Part shown: in pieces, positions 1 through 21,871 of the stretch
Numbering within the stretch: the stretch's first letter is position 1
Layout of the letters: every line of letters starts with the position of its first letter
NCBI RefSeq assembly: GCF_041080675.1
Contig: NZ_CP163520.1
Coordinates: forward strand, 3,844,001-3,908,000
Direction: 5' to 3'
DNA: 64,000 nt
DNA from: Streptomyces sp. cg36
GTDB taxonomy: Bacteria > Actinomycetota > Actinomycetes > Streptomycetales > Streptomycetaceae
The notes under the pieces: model-generated
Databases searched by the model: none
What the model saw: only the letters and a program-made list of their open reading frames with translations
What the model was told of the DNA's origin: nothing
Made by a program: the position numbers and the translations under genes

Positions 1-727
1 GGTCGTCCTCGGTCTCGAAGGACTCGTCGGCCACGATCGGTACGGGGTGGTGCAGTTCGGCCAGGCCGGGTTCGGCGGCGGCGTCCACGGGCTGTTCGAG
101 CATCCGGACGCGGTGCCGGTCCAGGAGCGGCAGCAGTTCGCGCAGTACGTCCAGGTCCCAGCCGCCGTTCACGTCGACGACGAGGCTCGCGTCGGGGCGC
201 ACGGCCCGGGTCCGCTCCAGTCTGCGCACGTCGTCGTCGGCGTCCGGGGAGCCGAGTTTGAGCTTGAGGACGCGGGACGAGCGGCTCTCGGCGAGCTCCT
301 GCTCCAACTGGTCGGGGTCGGCCAGGGAGATGGTGGTCATGATCTCCAGCGGCTTGGGCTCCGGCGTGCCGAGCAGCCGCCAGACGGGGACGCCGGCGCG
401 CTTGGCCGCCAGGTCCCACAGGGCCGCGTCCAGCGCGTTGCGGGCGGCGCCCTGGACGAGCCGGCCGAGGAGGCCGTCCCGGCCCACCGTGCCGCTCTCC
501 ACGAGCGGGCCGACCGCTTCGAGTTCGGCGACGGTCTCCTCGGCGGAGACCTCGAACCAGCTCTCGAAGGGCGCCCCTTCGCCGCGTCCGGTCCGGCCGC
601 CGGAATCCGGCGGGTCGCGCAGCTCGACGCGGACGACCGTACAGGTGAGGTCATGGCCGCGGGCGTATGTGTAGGGAAGTCCGAACGCAATCTCCTGGCG
701 CACCACGGCGAACTGCAAGGAATCCAC
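1..727 (-). CDS. Enolase-superfamily dipeptide epimerase-like protein (3' end outside window)
   Basis: About 242 residues of an enolase-superfamily protein are present; the C-terminal half of the barrel lies beyond the window edge. Visible in order: an N-terminal capping domain, the K-x-K catalytic pair in VLKLKLG, and the three metal ligands in DVNGGWD, EQP and ADES. These are the signatures of the muconate-lactonizing/dipeptide-epimerase subgroup, whose members epimerise the second residue of dipeptides such as L-Ala-L-Glu; the exact substrate cannot be read from this fragment. An in-frame TGA precedes the GTG at 727; the TTG at 718 is an alternative start. No clear ribosome binding site is visible. 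The gene is divergent from the peptide-led operon that starts at 1101 and may share its control region, so it could belong to the same pathway. Confidence 0.75.
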   Translation of the reverse strand, partial: MDSLQFAVVRQEIAFGLPYTYARGHDLTCTVVRVELRDPPDSGGRTGRGEGAPFESWFEVSAEETVAELEAVGPLVESGTVGRDGLLGRLVQGAARNALDAALWDLAAKRAGVPVWRLLGTPEPKPLEIMTTISLADPDQLEQELAESRSSRVLKLKLGSPDADDDVRRLERTRAVRPDASLVVDVNGGWDLDVLRELLPLLDRHRVRMLEQPVDAAAEPGLAELHHPVPIVADESFETEDD

Positions 728-1100: not shown

Positions 1101-1160
1101 ATGTCGGAAAAGGACTTCATGGGAACGCGCGACAACGAGCAGGACACCACGAAGTGGTAG
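1101..1160 (+). CDS. 19-residue peptide ORF, candidate precursor peptide
   Basis: The ORF starts with ATG nine bases after a near-perfect ribosome binding site (GGAGGAGG, 1084-1091), far better than expected for random sequence. The peptide is MSEKDFMGTRDNEQDTTKW: acidic, hydrophilic, without Cys, and ending in a C-terminal Trp directly before TAG. A perfect hairpin follows 35 bases later, then a run of enzyme genes on the same strand. Short leaderless-looking peptide, hairpin, then modifying enzymes is a common layout for ribosomally made peptide products, where the hairpin lowers expression of the enzymes relative to the precursor. The frame stays open upstream to 804, but no upstream start has such a binding site. 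I do not recognise the peptide. It might instead be a regulatory leader peptide. Confidence 0.6.
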   Translation: MSEKDFMGTRDNEQDTTKW

Positions 1161-1194
1161 TCCCGTTTTAGCGGTGTGGAACAAGAGGCGAAAA

Positions 1195-1224
1195 GGCCGC
1201 CCGTACACTCCAGTACGGGCGGCC
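1195..1224 (+). terminator. Perfect 12-bp hairpin, probable attenuator after the peptide ORF
   Basis: GGCCGCCCGTAC (1195-1206) pairs perfectly with GTACGGGCGGCC (1213-1224) around a 6-base loop. No T-run follows, which is usual for actinobacterial terminators. It sits between the peptide stop (1160) and the next start (1249), so it would let part of the transcripts stop after the peptide. Confidence 0.7.
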
Positions 1225-1248
1225 CCCACATGCGAAAGGGAGATGCCG

Positions 1249-2619
1249 GTGGTCGGCAACCTGCCATCCACGACCGTGGACCTGCCGCCCGAGTTCTTGA
1301 AGGTGGACGGCTCGGACGACGCCCGCTACTGGGAGTCGGTCCAGTCCGTGGTGGACCTCGCCGACCGCCGCGGCCGGGACGCCAAGGGCATTCCGCTGCT
1401 GGTCGCGCTGGCCGTGCGGCACCCGGAGTGGCCGGTGCGGGCCGCCGCGCTGCGGCTGCTGGCGGAGCGGCACCGGGCGGACCCGGCAGCCGCCGCGGCG
1501 ATCGCCGGCGGCACCCACGACCCGGTCGACTGGGTCGCGTTCACCTCGCTGCGGCTGATCACCGAACACCGCGTGCGGGCGGCGGTGCCCGATCTGATCC
1601 GGATATCCGGCTGGCCGAGCAATTTCACGCGGGAGGACTTCTCCCGCAAACCTGTGGGATGCGGCGCGGCCTTCACCAAGCGGGCGCTGCTCACCATCTT
1701 CGGCACCCGTGATCCCCAGGAGCTGCGGCGCCTTGAGGACGAGTTCTTCACGGACATGCGGGCACGGATACGCACGCACGCGACGCGCCCGCGCAGGACC
1801 GAGGGCGCGGTTCTCGTACCGGGTGGTCCTTTTATTGTCGGGAACGCGTCCGCGCAGAGCGGGCCTTTCCGCATGACCCAGGACGACAATCCGCTGCGGG
1901 CGGTCGACCTGCCCGCCTACTGGATCGACCGGACGACGGTCACCAATGCGCGGTACGCCGAGTTCCTGGCGGAGGCCGGGGAAAGCGGTGTGTTCGACCA
2001 CCCGGACCAGCCGGAGGACGGCAGGAATCACCGTCCGGCACACGCCCACGACCCCCGGTTCAACGCACCGGAAATGCCCCAGGTCGGAATCGACTGGTAC
2101 GACGCGTGGGCCTTCGCGAATTGGGCGGGCGGCTCGCTGCCGAGCGAGCTCCAGTGGGAGAAGGCGGCGCGCGGGACGGACGGCCGGACCTACCCGTGGG
2201 GCGACGCCTGGGATCCGGAACGGGTGCACTACGTCGAGCGCTCCTACGGGCGGCAGGTGGCCGACCTGGACGAGTTGGAGGCGCTGTTGGTCACCACTAC
2301 CCACGACGACACCCCGGCACACCCCGTCCTGCCCGCCGACAGCCTGCCGCGCGGGGCCAGTCCGTACGGCGTGCTCCAGATGTCCGGGAACGTCTGGGAG
2401 CTGACCCGGACCAACTTCTACACCGGCGAGGACATGGACCCCTTCTTCAAGGGCCGCCACCCGATGGAGTTCATGAACCGCAAGGACGCCTTCCACGTGC
2501 TGCGCGGCGGCACCTGGACCTCGCCGCCCGCCTGTCTGACGACCTACTACCGGGGCAAGGACCTGATCACCGATCTGCACAACGAGGTCGGGTTCCGCTG
2601 CGTGTACGACGCGGAATGA
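1249..2619 (+). CDS. FGE/SUMF1-family (formylglycine-generating enzyme-like) protein with helical N-terminus
   Basis: 456 residues. The C-terminal ~270 (from about residue 186) form a complete SUMF1/EgtB/PvdO-type fold: VPGGPF, a TTVTNARYAEF segment, a WAGGSLPSELQWEKAARG stretch, YPWGD, MSGNVWEL, LRGGTW and a terminal GFR. Family members oxidise Cys to formylglycine or perform other oxygen-dependent reactions. In the segment where classical FGEs have a Cys pair, my eye alignment finds only Cys429 (PPACLTTYYR), with Cys451 at the end (GFRC), so a standard copper FGE mechanism is doubtful. Residues 1-180 look like HEAT-type helical repeats, perhaps a peptide-binding platform. GTG 1249 is preferred because GGGAG (1238-1242) is six bases away; ATG 1243 touches that site. 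Twelve bases precede the next gene. Confidence 0.8.
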   Translation: MVGNLPSTTVDLPPEFLKVDGSDDARYWESVQSVVDLADRRGRDAKGIPLLVALAVRHPEWPVRAAALRLLAERHRADPAAAAAIAGGTHDPVDWVAFTSLRLITEHRVRAAVPDLIRISGWPSNFTREDFSRKPVGCGAAFTKRALLTIFGTRDPQELRRLEDEFFTDMRARIRTHATRPRRTEGAVLVPGGPFIVGNASAQSGPFRMTQDDNPLRAVDLPAYWIDRTTVTNARYAEFLAEAGESGVFDHPDQPEDGRNHRPAHAHDPRFNAPEMPQVGIDWYDAWAFANWAGGSLPSELQWEKAARGTDGRTYPWGDAWDPERVHYVERSYGRQVADLDELEALLVTTTHDDTPAHPVLPADSLPRGASPYGVLQMSGNVWELTRTNFYTGEDMDPFFKGRHPMEFMNRKDAFHVLRGGTWTSPPACLTTYYRGKDLITDLHNEVGFRCVYDAE

Positions 2620-2630
2620 GAGGACCATCC

Positions 2631-4049
2631 ATGCGGCTCACCTCCCTCGGCCACGCGGCCGTCCTCGTCGAGACCGGGGGCCGGCGCATCCTCTTCGACC
2701 CCTGGCTCACCCAGCGCCTGGACCGCTTCTGGGAGCACCACCCGGCCCTGCCGGACACCCTGGGGGAGCTCCTGGACGGCGGCGTCGACCACATCGTGCT
2801 CAGCCACCACCACTTCGACCACCACCACTTCCCTTCCCTGACGCGGCTGTTGGAGGACGGCGAGGTCGACTTCGACGACAGCCCGCACCGGGCCGCCGAG
2901 ACCGAGTGCGTCTTCCCGGTCGGCGACCGCGTCCCGCCCCGCTTCACCGCGTCGGGCCTCGGCCACCAGGCGATCGGCTGGACGCTGCGCAGGCTCGGCT
3001 TCGAGCGGCTGACGCCGGTCACCCCGGGCGAGACCGTGCGGCTGGGGGAGGACGTGGTGCTGCGCACCTTCGTCTCCGACGTGCCGTTCCCCGAGATGAG
3101 CGTGCTGGTCGAGACCGCCGGGGCGTCGGTGCTGCTCTGCGGGGACTCGATCCTGCACGAGTCGACCGTGCGCCACTTCACCGGCCCCGACGCCCGCCCG
3201 CCGGACGTGGCGTTCGTGCCCGCGCACAGCGTCTCGCCTCCCGGGGTCCTCACCGAGCGCCGCCCGCTGGGCGACCACGCGGCGGTCCGGGCCCGGGCGG
3301 TCGCCAACTTCGACCGGTACGTGCACGCCCTCGGCGCCCGGGTCACCGTCCCCTCCTCCTTCGGCTGGAAGGTCAGCGGGGAGGGGGAGCGGGACTACGG
3401 CTGGTGCAACCGCACCATCTTCCCGTTCACCCCCTGGGAGGCGCTCGCCCGGCTGCGCGAGCTGGGCCGCGAGGGGCTGCTGTGGGGGCCGGGACAGGTC
3501 ATCGAGGTCGCGGACGGCAAGGTCGAGCAGTACAACGGGCCGCACGCGCCGGACGGTTACGACTTCGAGGCGGTGTACGCGGAGGTCACCCTGGACCCGG
3601 CCGCCGAGGTGCCCCCCTTCGACCCGGCGCACGACCGGGCGGGCCGCCAGAACCGGTCCTCGCAGCGGCTGCTCACCGAGGTGATGGACCTCCTGGTGGG
3701 CTCCGACTTCTGGTACCGGGCGCTGGACAGCGGCGCCACCCACACCTTCTCGCTCCACGACGACGGCGGCTCCACCCACAGCTATCTGCTGGAGCCGGTG
3801 AGCGGCCGGATCAGCCACCTCGGGCCGGGCCCGGCCCGCGACCACCTCAGCCAGGACAACGGCTACACCGAGATCGCCGCGAGCACCCTCCAGGCGCTGC
3901 TGGACAGCGAGTTGCTCTTCGGCAGCTCCTACGGGCTGTGGGCGAGCAACAGCGGTCTGCTCTCGGCCGTCTTCCACCACCCCGCCTTCTACACGCGCCG
4001 GGTCGACCGGGCGCTGAGCCGGGAGACCGGTGGACGGGCGCCCGTATGA
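2631..4049 (+). CDS. Metallo-beta-lactamase-fold protein with C-terminal extension
   Basis: 472 residues. The N-terminal part has the MBL start (LTSLGHAAVLVE, FDPWL) and the HxHxDH metal motif at His59, His61, Asp63 and His64, then CGDS and a later His-containing strand (FVPAHS). The layout resembles the UlaG / CMP-NeuNAc-hydroxylase-like branch of the superfamily rather than beta-lactamases. Residues from about 320 to 472 form an extra domain rich in Tyr and Phe that I do not recognise. The start is fixed by AGAGGA six bases upstream, and the stop overlaps the next ATG (ATGA). It could hydrolyse or oxidise a pathway intermediate; the substrate is unknown. Confidence 0.75.
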   Translation: MRLTSLGHAAVLVETGGRRILFDPWLTQRLDRFWEHHPALPDTLGELLDGGVDHIVLSHHHFDHHHFPSLTRLLEDGEVDFDDSPHRAAETECVFPVGDRVPPRFTASGLGHQAIGWTLRRLGFERLTPVTPGETVRLGEDVVLRTFVSDVPFPEMSVLVETAGASVLLCGDSILHESTVRHFTGPDARPPDVAFVPAHSVSPPGVLTERRPLGDHAAVRARAVANFDRYVHALGARVTVPSSFGWKVSGEGERDYGWCNRTIFPFTPWEALARLRELGREGLLWGPGQVIEVADGKVEQYNGPHAPDGYDFEAVYAEVTLDPAAEVPPFDPAHDRAGRQNRSSQRLLTEVMDLLVGSDFWYRALDSGATHTFSLHDDGGSTHSYLLEPVSGRISHLGPGPARDHLSQDNGYTEIAASTLQALLDSELLFGSSYGLWASNSGLLSAVFHHPAFYTRRVDRALSRETGGRAPV

Positions 4050-5053
4050 GCGAGGCGCTGGGGACGCGGGTCCTGGTCGAGCACACCAGCGCGTGTCTGC
4101 GCGACAACCCGCTGGGCGACCCGGCCACCCGCCGGATAGAGGTCCTGCTGCCGCCGGGGTACGACGAGGGGCGGCGCTACCCGGTGGTGCACTGGCTGCC
4201 CGGGTTCGGCGCGTACCCGTCGCTGACCGGGCGCCCGCTGGCGTTCGGCGAGGCCCCGGCGGACCGGGTCCACCGGGCGATGGCGCGCGGCACCGTCCCG
4301 GCCGCGCTGATCGTGGTGCCGGACGCCACCACCGCGTACGGCGGCTCCCAGTACCTGGACGCGCCCGCCTGCGGTCGCTACCTCGGCCAGCTGGCGGAGG
4401 TGGTGGCCGAGGTCGACCGGCGCTTCCCGACCCTGGCCGAGCCCCGCTGGCGGGCGGTGGGCGGGAAGTCGAGCGGCGGGTACGGGGCGCTGGTGGCGGC
4501 GATGCGCACCGATCTGTTCGGCGCGGTCCTGGCGCACACGCCGGACGCCGGGTTCGAGCACAGCTATCTGCCGCTGCTGCCCGGCGTCCTGGACACCCTG
4601 GAGGCGGCGGGCGGGGTCGAACGGCTGCTGGCCCAGCGGGAGTCGGGCCCGCACGACACCCCGTTCATGGTCGCGATGAGCCTGCTGGCGATGGGCATGT
4701 GCTACGCCGACGAGCCCGGCACCACGCCCGCCGAGGCGCTGCCGTGCGACCCGCGCACCGGCCTCTTCCGGCCGGCGGTGTGGGAGCGCTGGCTGCGCCA
4801 CGACCCGGTGCGCCTCTCCCCCGCGCACGCCGGCCGGCTGCGCGCGCTGCGGCTGCTCTACCTGGACACCGGCAGGCGCGACGACTACCACATGCACTGG
4901 GGCGTACGGGCGTTGCACGCGGTGTGGCGCGAGCACGGCATCGCGCACGAGTACCAGGAGCACGGCGGCGGCCACCACGGCATCGAGCACCGGTTCCTGA
5001 CCTCGCTCGCCCTGCTCGGGCGGGTGTGGGACGAGCCGGAACGGGGGGAGTGA
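4046..5053 (+). CDS. Alpha/beta-hydrolase, esterase D / enterochelin-esterase-like
   Basis: 335 residues. The nucleophile elbow is GGKSSGGYG with Ser142 as the likely catalytic serine, following a conserved VLLPPGYDEGRRYPVVHWLPG strand-turn typical of the putative-esterase family (esterase D, IroE/Fes, mycolyltransferase folds). An Asp in LDTGRRDD and a His in EHGGGHHGIEH are plausible partners in the triad. There is no signal peptide, so it is probably cytoplasmic. It overlaps the metallo-beta-lactamase-fold gene by four bases and is followed one base later by the amidotransferase gene, so it is cotranslated with the pathway enzymes. A role in releasing or hydrolysing an ester or peptide intermediate is inference. 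Confidence 0.75.
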   Translation: MSEALGTRVLVEHTSACLRDNPLGDPATRRIEVLLPPGYDEGRRYPVVHWLPGFGAYPSLTGRPLAFGEAPADRVHRAMARGTVPAALIVVPDATTAYGGSQYLDAPACGRYLGQLAEVVAEVDRRFPTLAEPRWRAVGGKSSGGYGALVAAMRTDLFGAVLAHTPDAGFEHSYLPLLPGVLDTLEAAGGVERLLAQRESGPHDTPFMVAMSLLAMGMCYADEPGTTPAEALPCDPRTGLFRPAVWERWLRHDPVRLSPAHAGRLRALRLLYLDTGRRDDYHMHWGVRALHAVWREHGIAHEYQEHGGGHHGIEHRFLTSLALLGRVWDEPERGE

Positions 5054-5054
5054 G

Positions 5055-6815
5055 ATGTGCGGGATCGCGGGTTTCATCAGCCTGGACGGGCCGCGCGAGA
5101 GGCCGTGGCTGGCCGCGCTGGGCGCCACCCTGACCGGCGCGCTGCACCACCGGGGCGAGCGGGCCGCCGCGCCCTGGGTGGCGCCGGACGCCACGGTGAT
5201 GCTGGCCTGCGTACGGCTCGCGGTGCGCGACCGCTCGGCCGCCGGGGACCAGCCGATGACCTCGCCGGACGGGCGCACGACGCTGGTGAGCAACGGCGAG
5301 GTGTACGCCTCGCGGGCGCCCCGGCCCGAGCCGTGGCCGCGCCGGACGCACTGCGACACCGAGTTCGCCCTCCAGCAGCTGGCCGGGACGGCGGAGCCCG
5401 CACCCGTACTCGCCGCCCTGGACGGGATGTTCGCACTGGCCTGGCACGACGGCGCCACCGCCACCACCACGCTGGCCCGCGACCACTTCGGGATCAAACC
5501 GCTGGTGTACTGCGAGGTGGCGGGCGGGGTGCTGTTCGCCTCCGAGCCCGCCGCACTGCTCGCCACCGGGCTGATCGCGCCCGAGGTGGACCCGGCCGAG
5601 TTCGTGCTGCGGTCGTGGGTGCGGATGGACGCGGCCGACGAGCGGACCTGGCTGCGCGGGGTGCGCGCGCTGCGGCCCGCCGAGTACCTGGTGGCGGGGG
5701 GCGGCCGGGTGCGCACCGGCCGCTACTGGCGGCCGGAGCCGGGCGACGAGCCGGTGGGCGCCGAGGAGATCCGGGCCGCCTTCGACCGGGCGGTCGACCT
5801 GCGGTCGGTGGCCGACGTGGAGCGGGCCGCGGTGCTCAGCGGCGGCGTCGACAGCTCGGCCGTCTTCGCCGCCCTGCACGCCCGGGGGGTGGTGCCCCGG
5901 CCGTACGTGGTGCGGTACGAGGAGGGCGCGGGCGGCTCCGACAGCGACGTGACGCACGCCCGGCTGGTCGCCGCCCGCCACGGGGTGGCGCTCACCGAGG
6001 TCGACCTGGACCGCCGGGACGCGGTGAAGCTGGTCCCGGAGGTGGCCGGGCGGCTGAACCGGCCGCTGCTGCACGGCGCGGAGCTCGCGATGTACCAGCT
6101 GTACGAGCGGATCGCCGCCGAGGGGCAGGTCGTCGTCTACTCCGGCCACGGCGCCGACGAGATGTGGGGCTACCAGGACGGCGGCTACTTCCCGGTGGTC
6201 GCCCCGGACGCCCCCGCCCATCTGCACGGCCGCCACTACCTCACCCACCGCCTCTACCCCGACGAGCGCCCGCTGTGGGGGGAGCTGGTGACCTGGCTGG
6301 CCGGGGAGCTCGGCGTGGACATGGCCGGGGTGCGCGAGCAGGTGTGGGAGCGGGTGCTCGACGAGTACCGGGCGCTGGACACCCTCGACCCGGTCAAGCG
6401 GGGCCGCCACCACCTGATGCGCCGCTTCCTCGTCTACGTCAACGACATGGTCGACCTGACCTCCGCCGCGTACACCCTGGAGGACCGGCCGGTCTTCCAG
6501 GACGTCACCCTCGCCGAGCTGGCCTTCCGCTGCCCCGAGCACCTCAAGAGCACCGGGGAGCCCGGCAGCCACAAGGACCTGCTGAAGGAGGCGCTGGGCG
6601 GGCTGCTGCCGCCGTCCGTGGTCCGGCGCCGCAAACAGGGCTTCCCCTCCCCCGCCGACCCGTCGTACCGCGCGGCGCTGCGCACGCTGGCGGACGAGCA
6701 GGGCATGCCCTTCGGGCTCCCGGAGCCGCCCGCGCCGCTGCGCGACGCCCTCGGCACCGGTGAACTCATGTATCTCGCATCCGCCTCCGCCTGGCTCACC
6801 CGGACAGGGAAGTAG
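5055..6815 (+). CDS. Asparagine-synthetase (AsnB)-type amidotransferase
   Basis: 586 residues. Cys2 directly after Met (MCGIAGF) is the class II glutaminase nucleophile, and SNGEVY and HCDTEF-like motifs continue the glutamine amidotransferase domain. The ATP-pyrophosphatase motif SGGVDSS lies near residues 262-268, with YSGHGADE and a C-terminal RRRKQGF segment. Both domains look intact, so it should transfer glutamine-derived ammonia to an adenylated carboxylate. Lasso cyclases and beta-lactam synthetases usually lack the Cys2 glutaminase, which argues against those roles. It has a strong GGGGGGAG binding site at 5043-5050. The operon context points to amidation of a pathway carboxylate (peptide or small molecule) rather than general asparagine supply. 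Confidence 0.8.
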   Translation: MCGIAGFISLDGPRERPWLAALGATLTGALHHRGERAAAPWVAPDATVMLACVRLAVRDRSAAGDQPMTSPDGRTTLVSNGEVYASRAPRPEPWPRRTHCDTEFALQQLAGTAEPAPVLAALDGMFALAWHDGATATTTLARDHFGIKPLVYCEVAGGVLFASEPAALLATGLIAPEVDPAEFVLRSWVRMDAADERTWLRGVRALRPAEYLVAGGGRVRTGRYWRPEPGDEPVGAEEIRAAFDRAVDLRSVADVERAAVLSGGVDSSAVFAALHARGVVPRPYVVRYEEGAGGSDSDVTHARLVAARHGVALTEVDLDRRDAVKLVPEVAGRLNRPLLHGAELAMYQLYERIAAEGQVVVYSGHGADEMWGYQDGGYFPVVAPDAPAHLHGRHYLTHRLYPDERPLWGELVTWLAGELGVDMAGVREQVWERVLDEYRALDTLDPVKRGRHHLMRRFLVYVNDMVDLTSAAYTLEDRPVFQDVTLAELAFRCPEHLKSTGEPGSHKDLLKEALGGLLPPSVVRRRKQGFPSPADPSYRAALRTLADEQGMPFGLPEPPAPLRDALGTGELMYLASASAWLTRTGK

Positions 6816-6826
6816 GACACATCACC

Positions 6827-7927
6827 ATGGGCACCAACGAACACTGGCAGTGGCGGACCGTGGCCGACCCGGCCGCCCTGGAGGACGTACCGCCGCGCCT
6901 GGCGCCCCAAGAGGCCCAGGAGTGGTGCAACTTCACGCTGTGGCACCCGGCGGAGCTGCCCGCCGGATGCGACCGCGCCGAGGGCACCCTGCGCAAGGAG
7001 GCGCCGCCCGGACGCACCGGCCAGGACAGCGGGCGCACGCCCTGGTCCGAGGCCAACCCGGCCGCGTACCGCACCGAGATCGGCGGCGGCGGACGGCGGC
7101 TGCGGCTCAAGCAGTTCCTGTACGACTGGGCGTTCCCGGCGGCCGACCACCCCGCCCTGTGGGGCAGCGAGACGCTCCCCTTCCCGATCGGGGCGGACCG
7201 GGTGGTGTGGCTGGGCACCGACTACCTGGGGCATGCGGCGGCCTCGGCGCGGATGAGCCGGACCACCGTGGAACTGTCGGTCCTGGAGGGCGAGTTCACC
7301 GGCGAGGAGCTGGTGGCGCTCTACCGCTCGCTGCGGCCCGCCGTGCCGGGGGCGGCGGCGCGGGTGGTGGCCACCCCGTTCGCCGCGCTCAGCTACTGGG
7401 CGCGCCACCACGAGGTGGCCATGGTGTCGGTGCCGACCGGCCTGTTCGCCTTCCACCGGCGCACCCCGCCGCACGAGGGCGACTGGGTGGCGCCGGAGCG
7501 GCTCGCCGGCTTCCTGGCCGCCCAGCACCTGCCCGCCGCGCTCGGCGGTCTGCCCGCCGACAGCGCGGCCGTCTTCGCCGACGCCGCCGGTGCGCGCGAA
7601 CTGGAGGTGATCTACACCTCCGGGGGCGGCGACGAGCTGCGGCTGACCCTCCAGCGGCCGGGCGGCGGCCGGATGCCGTTCCCGCCGCAGCGCGAGAAGC
7701 ACCCGGGGCACGCGAAGGAGATCGGCCTCGACGGGCAGCCGGTGTACCTCGCGTACGTGGACGCCGGGGTCGGCCCGTTCGACGCGATGTGGCACGACCC
7801 GGCGGCCGGGGTCCAGGCGCGGCTGCTCAGCAGCGCCCGCACCGGCTGGGACAAGGCGTTCGCGCTGGCCCGGGTCCGCGAACTGCTGGCCGCCGCGCCG
7901 CTGAGCGGGGCGGGGTCCGTGCTGTGA
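6827..7927 (+). CDS. Protein of unrecognised family in the peptide-led operon
   Basis: 366 residues without a motif I recognise. It is soluble, Trp-rich at the N-terminus (HWQWRTV, EWCNFTLWHP), and has alternating strands such as VVWLGTDYLG and LEVIYTSGGGDELRLTLQ suggesting an alpha/beta fold. No signal peptide or membrane segment is visible. It begins eleven bases after the amidotransferase stop, and its TGA overlaps the GTG of the aldehyde dehydrogenase gene, so it is embedded in the operon. Since every neighbour is an enzyme, it may be a pathway-specific enzyme or peptide-binding partner. It is the prime orphan of this locus. Confidence 0.7.
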   Translation: MGTNEHWQWRTVADPAALEDVPPRLAPQEAQEWCNFTLWHPAELPAGCDRAEGTLRKEAPPGRTGQDSGRTPWSEANPAAYRTEIGGGGRRLRLKQFLYDWAFPAADHPALWGSETLPFPIGADRVVWLGTDYLGHAAASARMSRTTVELSVLEGEFTGEELVALYRSLRPAVPGAAARVVATPFAALSYWARHHEVAMVSVPTGLFAFHRRTPPHEGDWVAPERLAGFLAAQHLPAALGGLPADSAAVFADAAGARELEVIYTSGGGDELRLTLQRPGGGRMPFPPQREKHPGHAKEIGLDGQPVYLAYVDAGVGPFDAMWHDPAAGVQARLLSSARTGWDKAFALARVRELLAAAPLSGAGSVL

Positions 7928-9357
7928 CCCCGGGGGCCGGCACGGAACGGGAGCTGTACGACCCGGCGACCGGCGAGGTGCACGCCCGCCTCGCCGACAG
8001 CACCGCCGAGGAGTGCGCCGCCGCGGTGGACGCCGCCGCGCGCGCCTTCGACGGCTGGCAGGACGCCGGGCCGCGCCACCGCGCCGGGTGCCTGCGCGCC
8101 CTGGCCGCGCTGGTGCGCGCGCACGGCGCCGACTTCGTCGAGCTGGAGCGGGTCGGCGCGGGCAAGCCGGTCGCGCGGATCGGCGGCGAGGTCGACTTCG
8201 CGGTACGGGCGCTGGAGTGGTTCGCCGAGCAGGCGCTGCGGCCCTGGGGCGAGGTCCACCCCTCGGGGCCGGGCACCCGCGCCTACACCGACCGGGTGGC
8301 GCTCGGGGTGTGCGCGGCGATCGTGCCGTCCAACTACCCGCTGCTGATGGCCGCCTGGAAGGTGGGCGGCGCGCTCGCGTACGGCAACACGGCCGTCGTC
8401 AAGCCCGCCCCCGAGACCCCGCTGAGCGTACGGCTGCTGGTGGAGCTGGGGCGGCGGGTGCTGCCCGAGGGGGTGCTGGGCGCGGTGTACGGGGGCGCGG
8501 CGGCGGGGCGGCTGCTGTGCGCGCTGCCCGGGGTCGCCGCCGTCTCCTTCACCGGGTCCACGGCGGCGGGCCGCGAGGTGGCCGCGCACTGCGCCCCGGG
8601 CCTCAAGCGCGTCTCGCTGGAGCTGGGCGGCAAGAACCCGCTGGTGGTCTTCCCCGACGCGGACCTGGAGGCGGCGGCGGCCTCGGCGGTGGAGGCGTTC
8701 ACCGGGAACTCGGGCCAGATGTGCGTCGGCGCCTCCCGGCTGATCGTCCACGAGAGCGTGCGCGGCGACTTCGTCCGCGAGGTGGCGGCCCGCGCCTTCG
8801 CCCGCCGCGTCGGCCCGACCGCCGACCCGCGCACCGAACTGGGCCCGCTGATCAGCGCGCGGGCCGTGGAGCGGGTGGCGTCGGCGGTCGGGGAGGCGGT
8901 GGACAAGGGCGTCACCGCGCTGCTGCCGCCGGGGCGGCGGGAGGTGCGGCCGGAGCCGTCCGGGCCGCACGGCGGCGGGTTCTATGTGAGCCCGGTGGTC
9001 CTGGACGAGGTGCCGGGCGAGCTGCGGGCCTGGCGCGAGGAGCTGTTCGGGCCGGTCCTCGCGGTGCGCGGGTTCCGTACCGAGCGGGAGGCGCTGGAGC
9101 TGGCGCACGACACCGAGTACGGCCTCTCGGCGTCGGTGTGGACGGCGGACGGCGGGCGCGTGGAGCGGTTCGCGCGGCGGCTGCGGGCCGGGATGCTCTG
9201 GTTCAACACCTGGGGCGACACGGACGAGCACATCAGCGTCGGGGGGATCGGCCACAGCGGTTACGGCCGGGAGCTCGGGGTGCACGCGGCCGAGCAGTAC
9301 ACCCAGACCCGGGCGGTGTGGCTCGCCCACCCCGCCGCGCCCGGGGAGGGGCCGTGA
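7924..9357 (+). CDS. NAD(P)-dependent aldehyde dehydrogenase
   Basis: 477 residues, normal length for the ALDH superfamily. Visible: the VPSNYPLL and VKPAPETP cofactor segments, SFTGSTAAG, the general base Glu233 in LELGGKN, and catalytic Cys267 in NSGQMCVG; the C-terminal SGYGREL motif is also present. The protein resembles betaine/aminobutyraldehyde-type dehydrogenases. GTG 7924 is chosen because it overlaps the previous stop (GTGA); the 3' end overlaps the next gene in the same way. In context it would oxidise an aldehyde, possibly one released by the neighbouring aldolase-like enzyme. That coupling is inference. Confidence 0.85.
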   Translation: MTPGAGTERELYDPATGEVHARLADSTAEECAAAVDAAARAFDGWQDAGPRHRAGCLRALAALVRAHGADFVELERVGAGKPVARIGGEVDFAVRALEWFAEQALRPWGEVHPSGPGTRAYTDRVALGVCAAIVPSNYPLLMAAWKVGGALAYGNTAVVKPAPETPLSVRLLVELGRRVLPEGVLGAVYGGAAAGRLLCALPGVAAVSFTGSTAAGREVAAHCAPGLKRVSLELGGKNPLVVFPDADLEAAAASAVEAFTGNSGQMCVGASRLIVHESVRGDFVREVAARAFARRVGPTADPRTELGPLISARAVERVASAVGEAVDKGVTALLPPGRREVRPEPSGPHGGGFYVSPVVLDEVPGELRAWREELFGPVLAVRGFRTEREALELAHDTEYGLSASVWTADGGRVERFARRLRAGMLWFNTWGDTDEHISVGGIGHSGYGRELGVHAAEQYTQTRAVWLAHPAAPGEGP

Positions 9358-10379
9358 CCCCGCTCCTGGACTTCCGCAGCGACACCCGCACCGCCCCGGA
9401 CCGGGCGATGCGGGCCGCGATGGCGGGCGCCGAGGTCGGCGACGACGCGTACGGGGACGATCCGCGCGTGCTGGAGCTGGAGGCGGCGGGGGCGCGGCTG
9501 CTGGGCAAGGAGGCGGCGCTGTTCCTGCCGAGCAGCACCATGGCCAACCTGGTCGCGGTGCTGGCCGCCGCGCCCGCCCCCGGCACCCGGCTGCTGACCG
9601 GCGCCGAGACGCATCTGGCGCGCATGGAGGGCGAGGGGGTGCGCCGCTTCGCCCGGGTGGAGCTGGTCGAGCTGGCCCAGCGCGACGACGGCGCCCCCGA
9701 ACCGGCCGCGCTGGCGGGCGCGTTGCGGGCGGGCGCCGGACGGCCCGGGGTGCTCTCGCTGGAGAACACCTGCATGCTGCACCACGGCAACGCGCTCGCC
9801 CCGGCCGACCTGGCGCCGCTCGTGGAGCTCGGCCGGGCGCACGGCTGCCCCGTCCATCTGGACGGCGCCCGGCTCGCCAACGCGGCCGTGGCGCTCGGCC
9901 TGCCGGTGGCGGAGCTGGCGGCACCGGCGGACAGCGTGACGTTCTGCCTGGCCAAGGGGCTGGGCGCGCCCGTGGGGTCGCTGCTGTGCGCGGACGCGGA
10001 CTTCGTGGCGCGGGCGCGGGAGCTGCGGCTCCAGCTGGGCGGCACCATGCACCAGTCGGGCGTCCTCGCGGCGGCGGCGCTCGAAGGGCTGGAGCGGCTG
10101 GACCGGCTGGCCGAGGACCACGCGGTGGCCGCGGCGCTGGCCGAGGGCCTGGCGTCGGTGCCCGGGGCGCGGGTGCCGAGGCCGCCGCGCCGCACCAACA
10201 TCGTGACCGTGAAGCTGGCCGGGGTCGACGCCGGTGACCTGCACGAACGGCTGGCGGACCGGGGGGTGCTCGTCCTGCCTCTGCCGGACGGGAACGTACG
10301 GTTCGTGGTGCATCGCGAACACCGGCCGCAGGCGGTTCCGCTGGTGGTGCGCGCGCTTGCGGAAGCGGCGATCCAGTAG
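9354..10379 (+). CDS. Threonine aldolase / beta-eliminating lyase family PLP enzyme
   Basis: 341 residues, the usual size. The start DFRSDTRTAP, the AYGDDP motif, the HLDGARLANA segment and PLP-binding Lys201 in TFCLAKGLGAPVG are all typical of low-specificity threonine aldolases. These enzymes cleave beta-hydroxy-alpha-amino acids to glycine plus an aldehyde, or run in the synthetic direction. The GTG start overlaps the preceding aldehyde dehydrogenase stop. The pair could make or process a beta-hydroxy amino acid. This is the last gene of the operon; 117 bases follow before the next gene. Confidence 0.85.
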   Translation: MTPLLDFRSDTRTAPDRAMRAAMAGAEVGDDAYGDDPRVLELEAAGARLLGKEAALFLPSSTMANLVAVLAAAPAPGTRLLTGAETHLARMEGEGVRRFARVELVELAQRDDGAPEPAALAGALRAGAGRPGVLSLENTCMLHHGNALAPADLAPLVELGRAHGCPVHLDGARLANAAVALGLPVAELAAPADSVTFCLAKGLGAPVGSLLCADADFVARARELRLQLGGTMHQSGVLAAAALEGLERLDRLAEDHAVAAALAEGLASVPGARVPRPPRRTNIVTVKLAGVDAGDLHERLADRGVLVLPLPDGNVRFVVHREHRPQAVPLVVRALAEAAIQ

Positions 10380-10496: not shown

Positions 10497-13400
10497 GTGC
10501 GGCAGCGATTCCTCCGGCTCGGCCTGTCCCTGGCCGTGGTCGTCTCGGCGGTGCTGAGCAGTGTCGGCGCCCTCGGCCCCGGCGCGAAACGGGCCGACGA
10601 CGCCGATGTCGGCATCGTCAAGAAGGTCACCGGGGCGACCATGCCCCTGGAGCCCGGCGGCGTCTTCACGTACAGCCTCACGGCGTCGTGCTCCTCGCTG
10701 ACCACCTCGTGCGTGAACGCGGTCATCGAGGACGTGCTGCCCGCCGAGTTCGAGATCACCTCGCTGCCCAAGACCACCGACGGGCGGGTGGTGACGTACG
10801 ACGCGGGCAGCCGGAAGCTGACGATCCGCTTCACCGAGTCGCTCACCAGCCCGGCCGGGGCCGCCGGGCTGCCCGCCGGGGTGAACCGCAACGTCGTCAT
10901 CGGGATGCGGGTGCCCGTCGAGACGACGCTGGCGGACGGGGCCACCGTCCCCAACTCCGCCACCATCGACGCCGACAACGCGGCCAAGGCGTCCGACAGC
11001 GCCGACGTCACCGTCCGCATCCCGCGCGAGGTGCGCCCGGCCACCACCAAGAAGTGGACGGACGGCTCGGCGGTCGCCCAGTCCGGCGAGGAGTCGCTGA
11101 TCACCCTCGGGGTGCGCAACGGCTCCTCCACCTCCGCCGAGGTCACCCGGCTCGCCGTCACCGACACCACGCCCGCCGTCTTCGACGACTTCGACGTGGT
11201 CGGGATCGGGCCGGTGGAGCGGTTCCCGGCCGGGGCCGACCGGGTGCGGGTCCTGGTGTGCACCAAACCGGTCGGATCGCCGTGCGCGGACGGGGAGTTC
11301 ACGGCGGGCGCCGAGGGGCCCGGACCCGGGGTGGCGCTGCCCAAGGGGGTCGATCCCGCGAAGGTGACCGGGGTGCGGTTCGAGTTCACCTCGGCCTCGG
11401 GGGCCAGGCTCCCCTACGACGCCACCGGCGGCTCGGTCGGGCTGCGCCTCAAACTGCGCGACACCGTGCGCTCCACCGGTGCGCCGCTGGCGCCGACCAC
11501 CCGCGAGCGGATCGACAACTGCGCCGCCACGACCGCCCGCGACACCGTCTCGGGCGCGGTCACCGGCCCCCGGGCCTGCGCCTCCTTCGACATCCTGCCC
11601 AACATCGCGACCGTGCAGGGGACCAAGAGCTACTTCTCCGACACCGACGGGAACTACACGGCCGACGGCACCGCCGTCCTCGGCACCGATCCACCGGTCT
11701 CGATGGTGCTCGGCGCCCGCAACACCTCCTCCTTCCCCGTCGCCACGCTCACCATCACCGAGCCCTCGACGACGGCGGTCAGCGAGTTCGACAAGTTCGA
11801 CGCGGCCAAGGCGCGCGTGGAGTTCCCCGCCGGGGCCACCTCCGCCACCGTCACGGTGGTCTGCCGCGACGGCTCCAAGCCGGCGCCCGTCCAGCTCACC
11901 CAGCCGCCCGCGCGGCACGACCTGCCCGCCACCGGCTGTCCGGCGGGCAGCCCGCCGCGCCAGGTGTCGGTCACCTTCCGGGGCACCGACGCCAAGGGCA
12001 GCGGCACCATCGCCACCAACGCCCAGGGCAAGCTGTCCCTGCACGGCGTCCTCAACAAGAAGGCCACCGCGCAGGACGCCGAGGACGGCGTCGACAACTG
12101 CGCGGACGTGGCCGCCACCAACCCGGTGGACGGGGCGGGCGCCGGGGCCGGGACCGCCTGCGAGGCGCTGCGCCCGCAGAACCCGCGCACCGACATCCGC
12201 GGCTCCAAGACCGTCGACCAGAGCGAACTGCCGCCGGGCACCCCGGTGACCTTCACCCTCGACGTGGCCAACGCGGGCACCACCCCGATGGTCCGGCCCG
12301 CGATCACCGACCCGGCCGACCCGACCGCCGCGAACAACCCCTTCGACACCGTCCGCCTGACCCGGCTCTCGCTGCGCTACCGCTATCCGTCGGGGCTGCC
12401 GGTGCTGCTGGAGGTCCACGACCCGGCGGCCGGGGCGTGGGTCGCGTACAAGGAGGGCGACACCGCGCTGCTCACCCGGGCCAAGGGGGTGCGCGCCCGG
12501 CTCGCCGAGGGCAGTCTGCCGCCGCAGAACGGGCGGATCATCGTCGACGTCGAGGTGGTGCGGCGCGACGGCGTCGCGGACGGCGTCTCCTTCCACAACT
12601 GCGCGCAGATCACCTCCGACGGAAAGCCCGTCGGCGGCGGCTACTGCACCGCCGAGGAGAACGTCACCAGGCCCGCGAGCGCGGCCGGTTCGGTGCAGAA
12701 GACCATCGCGCCCTCCACCGTCTCGCGCAGCCTGCCCGGGGTGCCGCGCCAGGAGCCGGACGTGCGCGTCCGCGCCGAGAACACCGGCAACGTCAACCTC
12801 AGACAGCTGGTCGTCACCGACGTCGACCCGGACTTCTACGACGCCGTCGACTTCGTGCGGCTGACCGGGGTCACCTTCCCGCCGGGCGCCGACCGGGTAC
12901 GGGTCGACGCCTGCACCACCGGCTGCGCCGCCACCCCGCCGGTCTTCGTCCAGGGCGAGGCCACCGGCTCCACCACGCCCGGCCTGCCCGCCGGGGTGAA
13001 CGCCGCCGACGTGCGCGGACTGCGCTGGACCTTCACCAGCTCCTCCGGCGGCCACGCGCTGACCCCGGGCCCGGCCCGGCAGCCCGGCGCCTGCCCGGTG
13101 ACCGTCTGCTTCAAGGTCGCGGCCCGCCAGTTCCTGCGCTCGGCCCCGGCCACCGAGATCCCCGAGGAGCTGAGCGACACCGCGGGCGCGGCCGGCGAGT
13201 CGCCGCTCCAGCAGCCGGGCCGGCTCTTCGACTTCGGGGAGAGCGAGGCCACCCTCCACGTCCGCCAGGGCAGCGCCCAGCTGGACGTCTCCAAGACCCC
13301 GGACTCGCGCATCGGCCCCGGCGAGACCGCCCCGTTCACCCTGACCGTGCGCAACACCGGCACCGGCCCGGTCCCCGGCCTGGTCGTCGCCGACCCGGTC

Positions 13401-16400
13401 CCGGAGCTGCTGCGCTTCGACGAGGCGTACGCCGGTGACCGCGGCCTGCCGTTCAAGGTCACCGCCACCGTCCCGGCGGGCACGCCGCAGCCGCCCGACC
13501 CGGTGTACGAGCCGACGCGCGCCCCCGACGGGCGGGTGACCGCGCTGCGCTGGCGCTGGCCGTCCTGGACGATGCTGCCCGGCGCCGAAATCAAGATCAC
13601 GTTCCAGGTGAAGCCGGCCCCCGGCGTCCCCGGCGACTCGGTCGCGCAGAACGAGTTCGGCGCGGGCTCCGAGACCCGCCAGGACCTGACGTGCCTGCTC
13701 AACTCGGCCCGCGACGGGCAGGTGGTGGACGGCGAGGCGTACGGCAAGGGCCGCTACTGCACCTCGCGCGCCGAGATCACCACGCTCGCGGGCACCGCCT
13801 TCGAGGCCACCAAGTGGGTCGCGGGCAACGCCGACCTGGCCTTCTACAACACGGTGAGCCGCGGCTACGTGCCGCTGGACTCGCCCGGCTGCCCGGTCCT
13901 CAAGCAGGACGGCCGCACCTACACCCAGTTCCCCTGCACCGCGCTGGTCCAGCCCGGTGAGCACTTCGACTACCTGATCCGGGCGGTGAACTCGGGCACC
14001 GACCCGACCACCGAGATCCGGCTGCTCGACGTCTTCCCGTACCAGGGGGACACCGGAGTCCTGCTCGGCAACCAGCAGCGCGGCACCGAGTGGAACCCGC
14101 GCCCCCACCTCGCCGGACCGCCCACCCTGGTCGGCACCGGCACCCTCACCACCCGGTACGCCACCGCCGCCAACCCCTGCTCCGACCTGATCGCCACCCC
14201 GCGACGGGACTGCGCGCACGCCGAGTGGGGCGCGGCGTTCACGGCGGAGGCGTCCGGCGCGGAGCTGCGGATCGGCTTCCCCGAGCACCTGGCGCCGGGC
14301 GGCGAGGTGTTCGTCCGGCTGCCGATGGCCGCACCGGTCGACCTGGACCGGCCCGGCGACCCGGCGATCGCCTGGAACTCCTTCGCGCACTCCGAGACCG
14401 TGCTGCGCGGCGGCCGGCCCGAGGTGCTGCCGACCACCGAGCCGCCCAAGGTCGGGGTGGGGATGCGGTTCGGCAACCTGCGCGTCGACAAGGTCGCCGA
14501 GAACCCGCCGGACGGAGTGACGCTCGGCCCGTACACCCTCGCCTACCGCTGCGCGGTGACGCCGACGGGCGGGCGGCCGGTGACCGTGCGCGAAGGCACC
14601 TTCGAGGTCACCCTCTACACGCCGATGGCCCTGATCGGGGTCCCGGCCGGGGCGCGCTGCAAGGTGTGGGAGACCGACTCGGCGGGCGCGCACAGCTCCA
14701 GCCTGGGCGAGGCCAACGCCTCCGAGGTCACCATCACCCCGGCCACCCCCGACGAGGAGGGCCAGCACGTCACCATCACCAACACGTACACCAACGCCTC
14801 GCTGAAGGTCCGCAAGGCGGTCACCGGGCCCGCGGCGGCCGAGGTCGGCAAGGGGCCGTTCACGGTCCGGGTCGACTGCTCCTTCAACGGGAACCGGCTG
14901 ACCGGCTTCCCCAAGGACCTCGTCTTCGCGGGCGGCGGCGAGCAGTCCGTGACCGATCTGCCGGGCGGCGCCCGCTGCACGGCCACCGAGCCGGGCACCG
15001 GCGGCGCCACCTCGGTCGCCGTCGCCGCGACCGGGTCCAGCGACAAGGCGGTCGCGGTCATCGGGTCGGTGCCGGACGAGACGGCCGGGCTGACCGTCAC
15101 CAACCGGTTCGCCACCGGGTCGCTGAAGATCGTCAAGAAGATCCAGGGCAGCGGCGCCGCGTTCGCCGACCGCACCTTCCGCTTCCGGGTGGCCTGCGCC
15201 TTCAACGGCCGCAAGGACGCGGTGATCCGTACGGCCACGGCCAAGGCGCCCCGGCTCACCGCCGTCCTCGACGACCTGCCGGTGGGCGCGGAGTGCACGG
15301 TGACCGAGGCCGACCCGGCGGGCGCGGACGCGACCCCGCCGCCGGTGGGCCCGGTGACCATCGCCGAGGGCGCCCCGGCCACGGTGGCCGTCGACGTCAC
15401 CAACACCTTCTCCACCGGGCGCCTCACCCTGGTCAAGCAGGTGTCCGGGGCGCCCGACGACGCCCCGTACGCCAAGGAGTTCGTCTTCCGGGTCACCTGT
15501 GTCCGCGAGGGCGAGAGCCCGGACGGGGACCCGCTGGTGGCCTTCGTCATCCGCAAGCGGTACACGCTCGCGGCGGGCCAGTCGCTCGACATCGACACCC
15601 CGCTGCCCGTCGGCGCCCGCTGCTGGGCCGAGGAGATGGCCGACGGCGGCGCCACCGCCACGGCCGTGGACCACGGCAGCCACGCGACGGCCGCGGTCGT
15701 CACCAAGGACCGGCCGCATGTGACGATCACCGCCCGGAACACCTATGACACCGGCACCCTGAAGCTGGTCAAGAAGGTCACCGGCACGGCCGCCGCGTTC
15801 GGCGCGGACCGCACCTACGCGCTGCTGCTGACCTGCACGGTCGAGACCGCCAAGGGGCAGCCGCTGACCGTGGTGGACCGCCGCCGGTACGAGATCACCG
15901 GCTCCGGCGAGCGGACCGTCGACGACCTCGGCTTCCCGCTGCCCAAGGGCGCCAGGTGCTGGGCCGAGGAGGCCGTCGACGGCGGCGCCACCTCCGCCTC
16001 GGTCGACCACGACGGGCCCGGCCGGGCGGTGGTGATCGGCGGCGGCGAGGACGACGACGTCACCATCACGGCCACCAACGTCTTCGACGCGGCCGAACTG
16101 ACCGTGGCCAAGCGGGTGGTGGGCACGGCGGGTGCCGGGAAGGGCCCGTTCACCTTCACCGTGGCCTGCGCGACGCGCTCCGCCGACGGCACCTCCTCGC
16201 CGCTCGAACTCCCCGAGGAGGACCGGAAGTTCACCCTGGACGCGGGCGGCAGCCGGAAGATCGCGGTGCTGAAGGGCGCGGTCTGCACGGTCAAGGAGAC
16301 CGACGCGCCCGCCGGGGCCAAGGTGACGGTCGCCGACAGCGACGGCGAGGCGGACGGCGTCGTCCGGGTCACCGGCCCCTCGGAGGTGACGTACACCAAC

Positions 16401-19495: not shown

Positions 19496-21871
<2,376 letters not shown>

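What the first reader, a model, noticed from the sequence alone, without database searches (positions are those of the whole stretch)
1101..10379. Peptide-led operon with FGE-like, MBL, esterase, AsnB, unknown protein, ALDH and threonine aldolase
A 19-codon ORF with an excellent ribosome binding site is followed by a hairpin and seven tightly coupled enzyme-type genes, most overlapping by four bases. None is a known RiPP-class enzyme (no YcaO, radical SAM, LanM, ATP-grasp, MNIO), yet the layout is that of a ribosomal-peptide pathway. One model: the peptide or its terminal residues are oxidised by the FGE-like protein, amidated by the AsnB-type enzyme, and cleaved or trimmed by aldolase, hydrolase and dehydrogenase. 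I know of no described system with this set.
Basis: partly seen in the sequence, partly recalled or inferred. Interest (0 to 1): 0.88.

Follow-up and report, generated by a model that had tools for sequence, protein, structure and literature searches.

The report
Hidden KW peptides with FGE-like enzymes
A 19-residue gene in front of an enzyme operon in a Streptomyces-like genome is real and conserved, and it belongs to a wider, apparently undescribed group in which very short peptides with Lys-Trp at or near the end go together with one kind of oxidase-like enzyme, probably as raw material for small natural products.

Summary
The 19-codon ORF (1101-1160, MSEKDFMGTRDNEQDTTKW) is followed by a hairpin and seven enzyme genes. 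Of 34 loci fetched with the unknown protein, 17 carry the FGE-like gene, and all 17 have such an ORF upstream. Searching 392 genomes of the window's genus with the FGE-like protein gave 18 with a match at E 1e-50; all 18 have a short ORF upstream ending in KW or KW plus two residues. None of 29 other FGE-sulfatase loci shows one. In 11 loci of other types none of the other six type I enzymes is found; different tailoring genes stand there. Peptide and HEAT-FGE are thus the constant pair, usually with a PNPOx-fold gene. I read this as a new ribosomal-peptide class: the FGE-like enzyme acts on the Lys-Trp site, and in this type the product is cleaved, trimmed and ligated by the other enzymes. 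'No ATP-grasp' is wrong: a DdaF-like ligase lies 0.9 kb upstream of the window. No modification is shown; chemistry and product are inferred. Seven literature searches on the pair found no description.

The parts
1101..1160 (+). 19-aa precursor or carrier peptide MSEKDFMGTRDNEQDTTKW (type I KW peptide)
   Evidence: Sequence and RBS; orthologues at the same place in L008-L022 and in further HEAT-FGE loci
1195..1224 (+). hairpin, 12-bp perfect stem between peptide and FGE gene; a stem of 10 bp or more follows the peptide in 33 of 36 loci, with different sequence in different types
1243..2619 (+). HEAT-FGE: FGE-sulfatase (SUMF1/EgtB/PvdO) domain with HEAT-like N-terminal domain carrying a KPVG motif; likely peptide-modifying oxidase (start may be GTG 1249)
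   Evidence: PF03781 E 3.3e-46, HEAT_2 E 1.3e-4 below its cut-off; A3/A4 alignments
2631..4049 (+). MBL-fold enzyme; best solved relatives FrsH/CmlA diiron beta-hydroxylases, hydrolase not excluded
4046..5053 (+). alpha/beta-hydrolase of the PF00756 esterase family
5055..6815 (+). AsnB-type amidotransferase with N-terminal Cys (MCGIAGF)
   Evidence: absent in L022
6827..7927 (+). protein of unknown family; relatives without FGE or KW peptide nearby in haloarchaea, chlamydiae and others; AlphaFold model pLDDT 90, no clear fold match
7924..9357 (+). aldehyde dehydrogenase, nearest the aminobutyraldehyde/betaine-aldehyde DH models (below their cut-offs)
9354..10379 (+). GntG-family PLP aldolase (retro-aldol of beta-hydroxy amino acids; activity recalled)
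   Evidence: NF041359 296.8 bits over cut-off 230
1..727 (-). enolase-superfamily dipeptide/N-acyl-amino-acid epimerase-like gene, cut by the window start; followed upstream by PNPOx and ATP-grasp ligase genes outside the window (G000 C1:3841873-3843643)

Best explanation
The short ORF is the precursor or carrier peptide of a new class of ribosomal-peptide pathways defined by a peptide with Lys-Trp at or near its C-terminus and a HEAT-domain FGE-like oxidase. SHOWN by sequence: the pair is kept while the other genes are exchanged; the Lys-Trp site is the one element common to all peptides seen; an N-terminal [FI][ILM]x[ST]R[DE] motif goes with the closer FGE clades only. INFERRED: the HEAT-FGE binds the N-terminal part and oxidises Trp (or Lys) at the KW site, often with the PNPOx-fold protein as a second redox step; the modified C-terminal residue is cut off and becomes a building block. 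In the window's type I the MBL-fold enzyme (perhaps a CmlA/FrsH-like beta-hydroxylase), the GntG-type aldolase and the ALDH would shorten a beta-hydroxylated side chain to an aldehyde and then an acid, AsnB would amidate it, and the DdaF-like ATP-grasp ligase (with the epimerase in the window's subgroup) would make a small peptide. The hairpin would lower expression of the enzymes relative to the peptide.
For: 17 of 17 FGE-bearing loci from genome contigs and 18 of 18 genomes with a HEAT-FGE match at E 1e-50 out of 392 of the genus have the KW ORF; 0 of 29 other FGE-sulfatase loci do, nor do two further distant hits L112 and L113. 24 distinct peptides in 36 listed loci, all KW plus 0-2 residues. 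None of esterase, AsnB, ALDH, aldolase, unknown or MBL is found in L068 and L070-L079, so only peptide and FGE are shared with type I there, plus PNPOx in 10 of these 11. Tree: the 22 HEAT-FGE rows group (94/85) apart from all 21 control rows, and types I, III and V are each clades. Amino-acid ligase in types I and III, NRPS C and A-T proteins in L071 (type II). Peptide changes lean synonymous: W against L022 5 synonymous on 9.7 sites, 2 non-synonymous on 44.3. Precedent for an AsnB-like enzyme proposed to amidate a released Trp-derived acid in ammosamide (PMC12424672, abstract and section 9).
Against: No chemistry is shown. pS exceeds pN only moderately over all 120 type I pairs (0.32 against 0.18; many pairs nearly identical, so not independent) and some pairs go the other way (L010-L021: 0.10 against 0.16). 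In the 17 sequences Lys is always AAG and Trp has only TGG, so KW conservation alone cannot tell protein from nucleotide constraint. No dedicated peptidase is recognised among the genes scanned. Peptide types V and VII share only KW with the rest. In L026 the peptide is 1.7 kb from the FGE gene. No MFS exporter was found next to the window's own cluster or in L008 with the representatives used. L057/L070 was counted only after the length limit of the scan was raised from 32 (missed) to 45 codons. The FGE-like domain alone does not tell the reaction.
Confidence: 0.6

Rival explanations
1. The ORF is a regulatory leader peptide: ribosome progress over it controls the hairpin and hence expression of the enzymes (attenuation).
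For: A stem of 10 bp or more follows the peptide in 33 of 36 loci and keeps its shape while its sequence differs between types; a Trp codon sits at the end.
Against: One Trp codon, no run of one amino acid; the N-terminal half of the peptide is conserved as protein with synonymous changes; the ORF follows the enzyme type HEAT-FGE and not the downstream pathway; in L026 an MFS gene lies between peptide and FGE (gap 1728 nt); types with two residues after KW keep KW. No T run after the stem in the window. Three loci (L068, L070, L079) have no such stem in the first 110 bases after the stop.
Confidence: 0.1
2. The whole modified peptide (not an excised residue) is the product or signal, or a peptide-borne cofactor like PQQ or mycofactocin.
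For: Peptides are short and conserved over much of their length within a type; the KW position at the C-terminus resembles, from recall, the end-of-peptide sites of PqqA and MftA.
Against: Amino-acid ligases, NRPS C and A-T proteins and amino-acid enzymes (aldolase, ALDH, aminotransferase) in the clusters suit an intermediate of amino-acid size; patchy occurrence (18 of 392 genomes of the genus) suits a secondary metabolite rather than a cofactor.
Confidence: 0.2
3. The peptide is a non-substrate partner, a small subunit or activator of the HEAT-FGE, and the pathway works on free metabolites.
For: Strict pairing of peptide and HEAT-FGE independent of pathway.
Against: KW near the extreme end is kept when the rest of the peptide is replaced (types V, VII), as expected of a reactive site rather than of a binding surface.
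Confidence: 0.1

Closest known systems
Pearlins (3-thiaglutamate, 3-thiahomoleucine, ammosamide): amino acid modified on a carrier peptide and then cut off
   Same: Small-molecule pathway with a ribosomal peptide; C-terminal residue as the worked site; Trp in ammosamide; an AsnB-like enzyme proposed for final amidation (PMC9303977 abstract and start of introduction; PMC12424672 abstract and section 9)
   Different: No PEARL: the family PF04738 occurs once in the own genome, 4.2 Mb away; Lys-Trp is encoded in the peptide; peptides mostly 19-29 aa (TglA 50 residues per the abstract start of PMC9016710 in a search listing); the key enzyme is a HEAT-FGE
FGE / SUMF1, EgtB, SenA, PvdO, CalU17 (FGE-sulfatase domain enzymes)
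   Same: Same catalytic domain by sequence; best solved relatives CalU17, EgtB and FGE
   Different: HEAT-like N-terminal domain with KPVG motif; no Cys column is invariant across the group, so not the two-Cys copper site of FGE (site recalled)
Dapdiamide/bacilysin-type L-amino-acid ligase pathways (DdaF, BacD)
   Same: ATP-grasp ligase, in several types an exporter
   Different: Those make the amino acid free (recalled); here a ribosomal peptide and HEAT-FGE accompany the ligase
CmlA and FrsH diiron beta-hydroxylases
Guanitoxin GntG aldolase step and carnitine-type hydroxylase-aldolase-ALDH logic (both recalled)
   Same: GntG-family aldolase next to an ALDH
   Different: Substrate here unknown

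Membership tests
RiPP (any class) | Short conserved ORF co-located with modifying enzyme across genomes | tested here: met
RiPP (any class) | Peptide is post-translationally modified | not testable with these tools
   needs co-expression and mass spectrometry
RiPP (any class) | Match to a known precursor family | tested here: not met
   No NCBIfam hit at E up to 10 for five peptides of types III (two), IV, V and VII and the extended window frame; the 19-aa form is too short for the tool
Pearlin | PEARL enzyme in the cluster | tested here: not met
   PF04738 only at C1:8083638 in the own genome, cluster at 3.84 Mb; none among the cluster genes scanned with Pfam
Pearlin | Modified C-terminal residue is proteolysed off | not testable with these tools
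   no product known
Formylglycine-generating enzyme | FGE-sulfatase domain | tested here: met
   PF03781 3.3e-46
Formylglycine-generating enzyme | Pair of active-site cysteines (recalled) | tested here: not met
   No invariant Cys column in A4; C429 of the window is replaced in types V and VII
EgtB/SenA sulfoxide or selenoxide synthase | NCBIfam equivalog score over cut-off | tested here: not met
   77.3 of 360 and 65.4 of 420 bits
Lasso peptide | AsnB-type lasso cyclase over cut-off plus leader protease | tested here: not met
   82.6 of 525 bits; no protease family among the seven genes
CmlA-type diiron beta-hydroxylase (MBL gene) | Nearest relative by fold and profile, diiron ligands | tested here: inconclusive
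   first rank but close to hydrolases; low-confidence model; ligands not mapped
GntG-type PLP aldolase (last gene) | Score over the curated cut-off | tested here: met
   NF041359 296.8 over 230

The most novel reading that the evidence does not exclude
A large undescribed class of ribosomal carrier-peptide pathways: peptides mostly of 19-29 residues whose encoded Lys-Trp site is oxidised in place by a HEAT-FGE (a new use of the FGE fold on peptides), then excised as a non-proteinogenic building block that L-amino-acid ligases or stand-alone NRPS proteins assemble into natural products, without a PEARL, radical SAM, YcaO or MNIO enzyme.
Probability: 0.45. Interest if true: 0.92.

Novelty: new variant of a known kind. 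Interest (0 to 1): 0.85.

Why it matters
If true, it adds a ribosomal-peptide class that gene finders and RiPP miners miss: the peptide is below usual annotation size, and no CDS is listed at its place in the three annotated plasmid records looked at (L068, L069, L116), though that gene table is incomplete by its own description. It gives the FGE fold a role on small peptides, offers a rule (HEAT-FGE plus KW peptide) that points to at least seven peptide types, one of them on a large plasmid of Streptomyces clavuligerus, a well-studied producer, and makes the question of what is done to Lys-Trp directly testable with two genes.
Full report
What is there. The window lies in a 9.02 Mb genome of 3 contigs (G000 C1:3844001-3908000); it is unnamed, and its closest named relatives are Streptomyces. 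At 1101-1160 an ORF of 19 codons, MSEKDFMGTRDNEQDTTKW, follows a strong ribosome binding site. A 12-bp perfect hairpin lies at about 1195-1224, and seven genes follow on the same strand: HEAT-FGE (1243 or 1249-2619), MBL fold (2631-4049), esterase family (4046-5053), AsnB (5055-6815), unknown (6827-7927), ALDH (7924-9357) and a GntG-family PLP aldolase (9354-10379). Three of six junctions overlap by four bases. Upstream, on the other strand and partly outside the window, are an epimerase-like gene of the enolase superfamily, a PNPOx gene and an ATP-grasp gene; their relatives in L008 match the enolase superfamily, PNPOx_N and the DdaF-containing ATP-grasp models.

Conservation of the set. A pattern scan of the genome-contig collection with the unknown protein gave 34 loci; 17 of them carry the FGE gene. 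Of these, L008-L022 (15) have the order FGE, MBL, esterase, AsnB, unknown, ALDH, aldolase, except that AsnB is missing in L022 and the last gene of L011 is cut by the contig end. They include Streptomyces, Thermomonospora, Kineosporia and Actinacidiphila. Every one of the 17 has a short ORF ending in KW upstream; it is 19 residues long in 16 and 21 in L026, where an MFS gene stands between it and the FGE gene. In L027, a Mycobacteriales MAG, only peptide, FGE and the unknown gene of the set are found; L026 has two MFS genes, FGE, MBL, the unknown gene and a luciferase-like gene. The other 17 loci have the unknown protein without an FGE hit and without such a peptide in the DNA held, which is short for some (one RD...KW string in L039 lies in a longer frame).

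Peptide statistics. Over 16 type I sequences plus L027 the residues F6, R10, D11, K18 and W19 do not vary; outside that set L026 has Ile for F6 and L080 Glu for D11. Synonymous change is commoner than non-synonymous change over 120 non-independent pairs (pS 0.32, pN 0.18); W against L022 gives 0.52 against 0.05, while L010 against L021 gives 0.10 against 0.16. An in-frame stop lies at most ten codons upstream of the start in 17 of 36 loci. A stem of at least 10 bp follows within the first 110 bases after the peptide in 33 of 36 loci, not in L068, L070 and L079; within type I the stem is GCCGCCCGTACGG-like, in L027, L026 and types II, III and V it has other sequences. The z-scores come from mononucleotide shuffles only.

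The wider class. A search with the FGE alignment A3 over 392 genomes of the window's genus gave 18 genomes with E at most 1e-50, 21 places, three of which are second FGE genes in the same operon. All 18 genomes have the KW ORF upstream of the first FGE: the window, L052-L066 (15 loci) and, read in larger stretches, G048 and G052 (L077, L078). One of them (L057/L070) is seen only with the length limit at 45 codons, not at 32. The peptides fall into types: I as in the window; II MTAEDFL[AG]SRE[AS]GEAATKW, also on a Streptomyces clavuligerus plasmid (L068); III MSDETFLGSRDGGDETTAKWEA and two relatives with KWEG and KWEA; IV a GTG-started frame of about 40 residues ending DIDRFLNSRDADTDVHKW; V MKTLRQWNALRSQRKGGVRPAGKYFKWAA; VI L026 and L027; VII MSYGSQWEKAVSTRSLKKRLTDADKW. 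In all, 24 distinct peptides in the 36 loci; that was a list of loci already known to have one, so its own 36 of 36 is no test; the tests are the 17 of 17 and 18 of 18 above. No two of the 36 share more than 63% of 21-mers in the FGE gene stretch compared. Controls: one search listed 46 FGE-sulfatase places in the window's genome and 20 relatives; 30 became loci, one of them the window's own FGE; none of the other 29 has a KW ORF in the 1500 bases upstream of the domain, even without asking for an RBS. Two more distant hits, an EgtB-like protein and another FGE, have none either. Over 528 kb of strand (whole window plus 11 loci) one unrelated KW ORF appears. In the phylum-wide sample, 5 of 396 genomes matched A4 at E 1e-30; three were already known, two match the FGE domain only.

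What varies around the pair. None of the esterase, AsnB, ALDH, aldolase, unknown or MBL proteins of the window is matched at E 1e-6 in L068 and L070-L079. Type II: class II aldolase, luciferase-like oxidoreductase, stand-alone condensation protein, A-T protein, aminotransferase and PNPOx in L071, with MFS and methyltransferase in L071 and L074; in S. clavuligerus aldolase, oxidoreductase, two aminotransferases, PNPOx and a P450, without NRPS genes in the stretch. Type III: PNPOx, MFS, methyltransferase and L-amino-acid ligase in L072, L073 and L075, P450 tested in L075. Type IV: PNPOx and a Methyltransf_33 protein. Type V: PhyH, second HEAT-FGE, MFS, PNPOx, next to FAD monooxygenase and protoporphyrinogen-oxidase-like genes that also follow type I clusters in several strains. 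Type VII: MFS and methyltransferase. PNPOx was found in every type I locus whose flanks were read except L011 (contig end); in L022 it is a partial hit at the far end. It was found in types II-V, not in L026, L027 and L079. MFS: in type I only in the L009-L021 and L069 subgroup, not by the window's cluster or L008.

The enzyme. HEAT-FGE has PF03781 at its C-terminus and a HEAT-like N-terminal domain. Invariant over 17 diverse members are, among others, H58, R64, D91, D94, K134-G137, H251, D268, R270, W317, N381, E384, R435, D438, H444, E446 and R450; no cysteine is invariant. Best solved relatives are CalU17, EgtB and FGE. The tree of FGE domains groups the 22 HEAT-FGE rows (support 94/85) apart from all 21 control rows, with types I, III and V as clades; it is rooted at the midpoint and has long branches, so the root of the group is unsure.

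Most likely working. The pair peptide plus HEAT-FGE is the constant; the KW end is the constant of the peptide; where FGEs are at 56% identity or more to the window's, the motif [FI][ILM]x[ST]R[DE] is shared as well, and where they are at 33-36% it is not. The simplest reading is recognition by the N-terminal part and reaction at Lys-Trp. Amino-acid ligases and NRPS proteins in several types suggest that the reacted residue leaves the peptide and is built into a small product, as in pearlins (PMC9303977, abstract). In type I, a possible beta-hydroxylase of the CmlA/FrsH kind (weak), the GntG-type aldolase, the ALDH and AsnB then fit a side-chain shortening to an acid and amidation, the last as proposed, not shown, for Amm20 in ammosamide (PMC12424672, section 9). 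All chemical steps are inference.

Limits. No modification, product or activity is known; the large protein database could not be searched with the FGE profile; sampling was deepest in the window's genus, so the spread outside it is little known.

Noticed in passing
L068:7505-7564 (Streptomyces clavuligerus plasmid pF1D18A): Type II KW peptide MTAEDFLGSREAGEAATKW before a HEAT-FGE with class II aldolase, LLM oxidoreductase, aminotransferases, PNPOx and P450; no CDS listed for the peptide.
   Followed up: partly
L077:3670-7410 and L078, L076: Type V operons: 29-aa KW peptide, HEAT-FGE, PhyH oxygenase, second HEAT-FGE, MFS, PNPOx, next to genes that also flank type I clusters in other strains, as if one cluster type replaced the other.
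   Followed up: partly
window 6827-7927 and L030-L041: The unknown protein family (129 homologues found, 120 listed) occurs without FGE nearby in haloarchaea, chlamydiae, Marinimicrobia and a myxobacterium; confident model without a clear fold match.
   Followed up: partly
window 10497-16589: 2030-aa surface-type protein with six DUF5979 stretches, DUF7601, DUF11 and an LPxTG-like end.
   Followed up: no
window 19496-21712, minus strand: Terpene synthase of about 738 aa with two Terpene_syn_C_2 stretches, the layout of geosmin synthase (name recalled).
   Followed up: no
L070:6701-6823: Type IV peptide is longer (GTG start, about 40 aa) and lacks the hairpin before the FGE gene, whose start nearly abuts it.
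   Followed up: no
L025:13836-15071: A MAG contig with the unknown protein and an ATP-grasp gene of the DdaF-like kind 3 kb away but no FGE hit or KW peptide.
   Followed up: no
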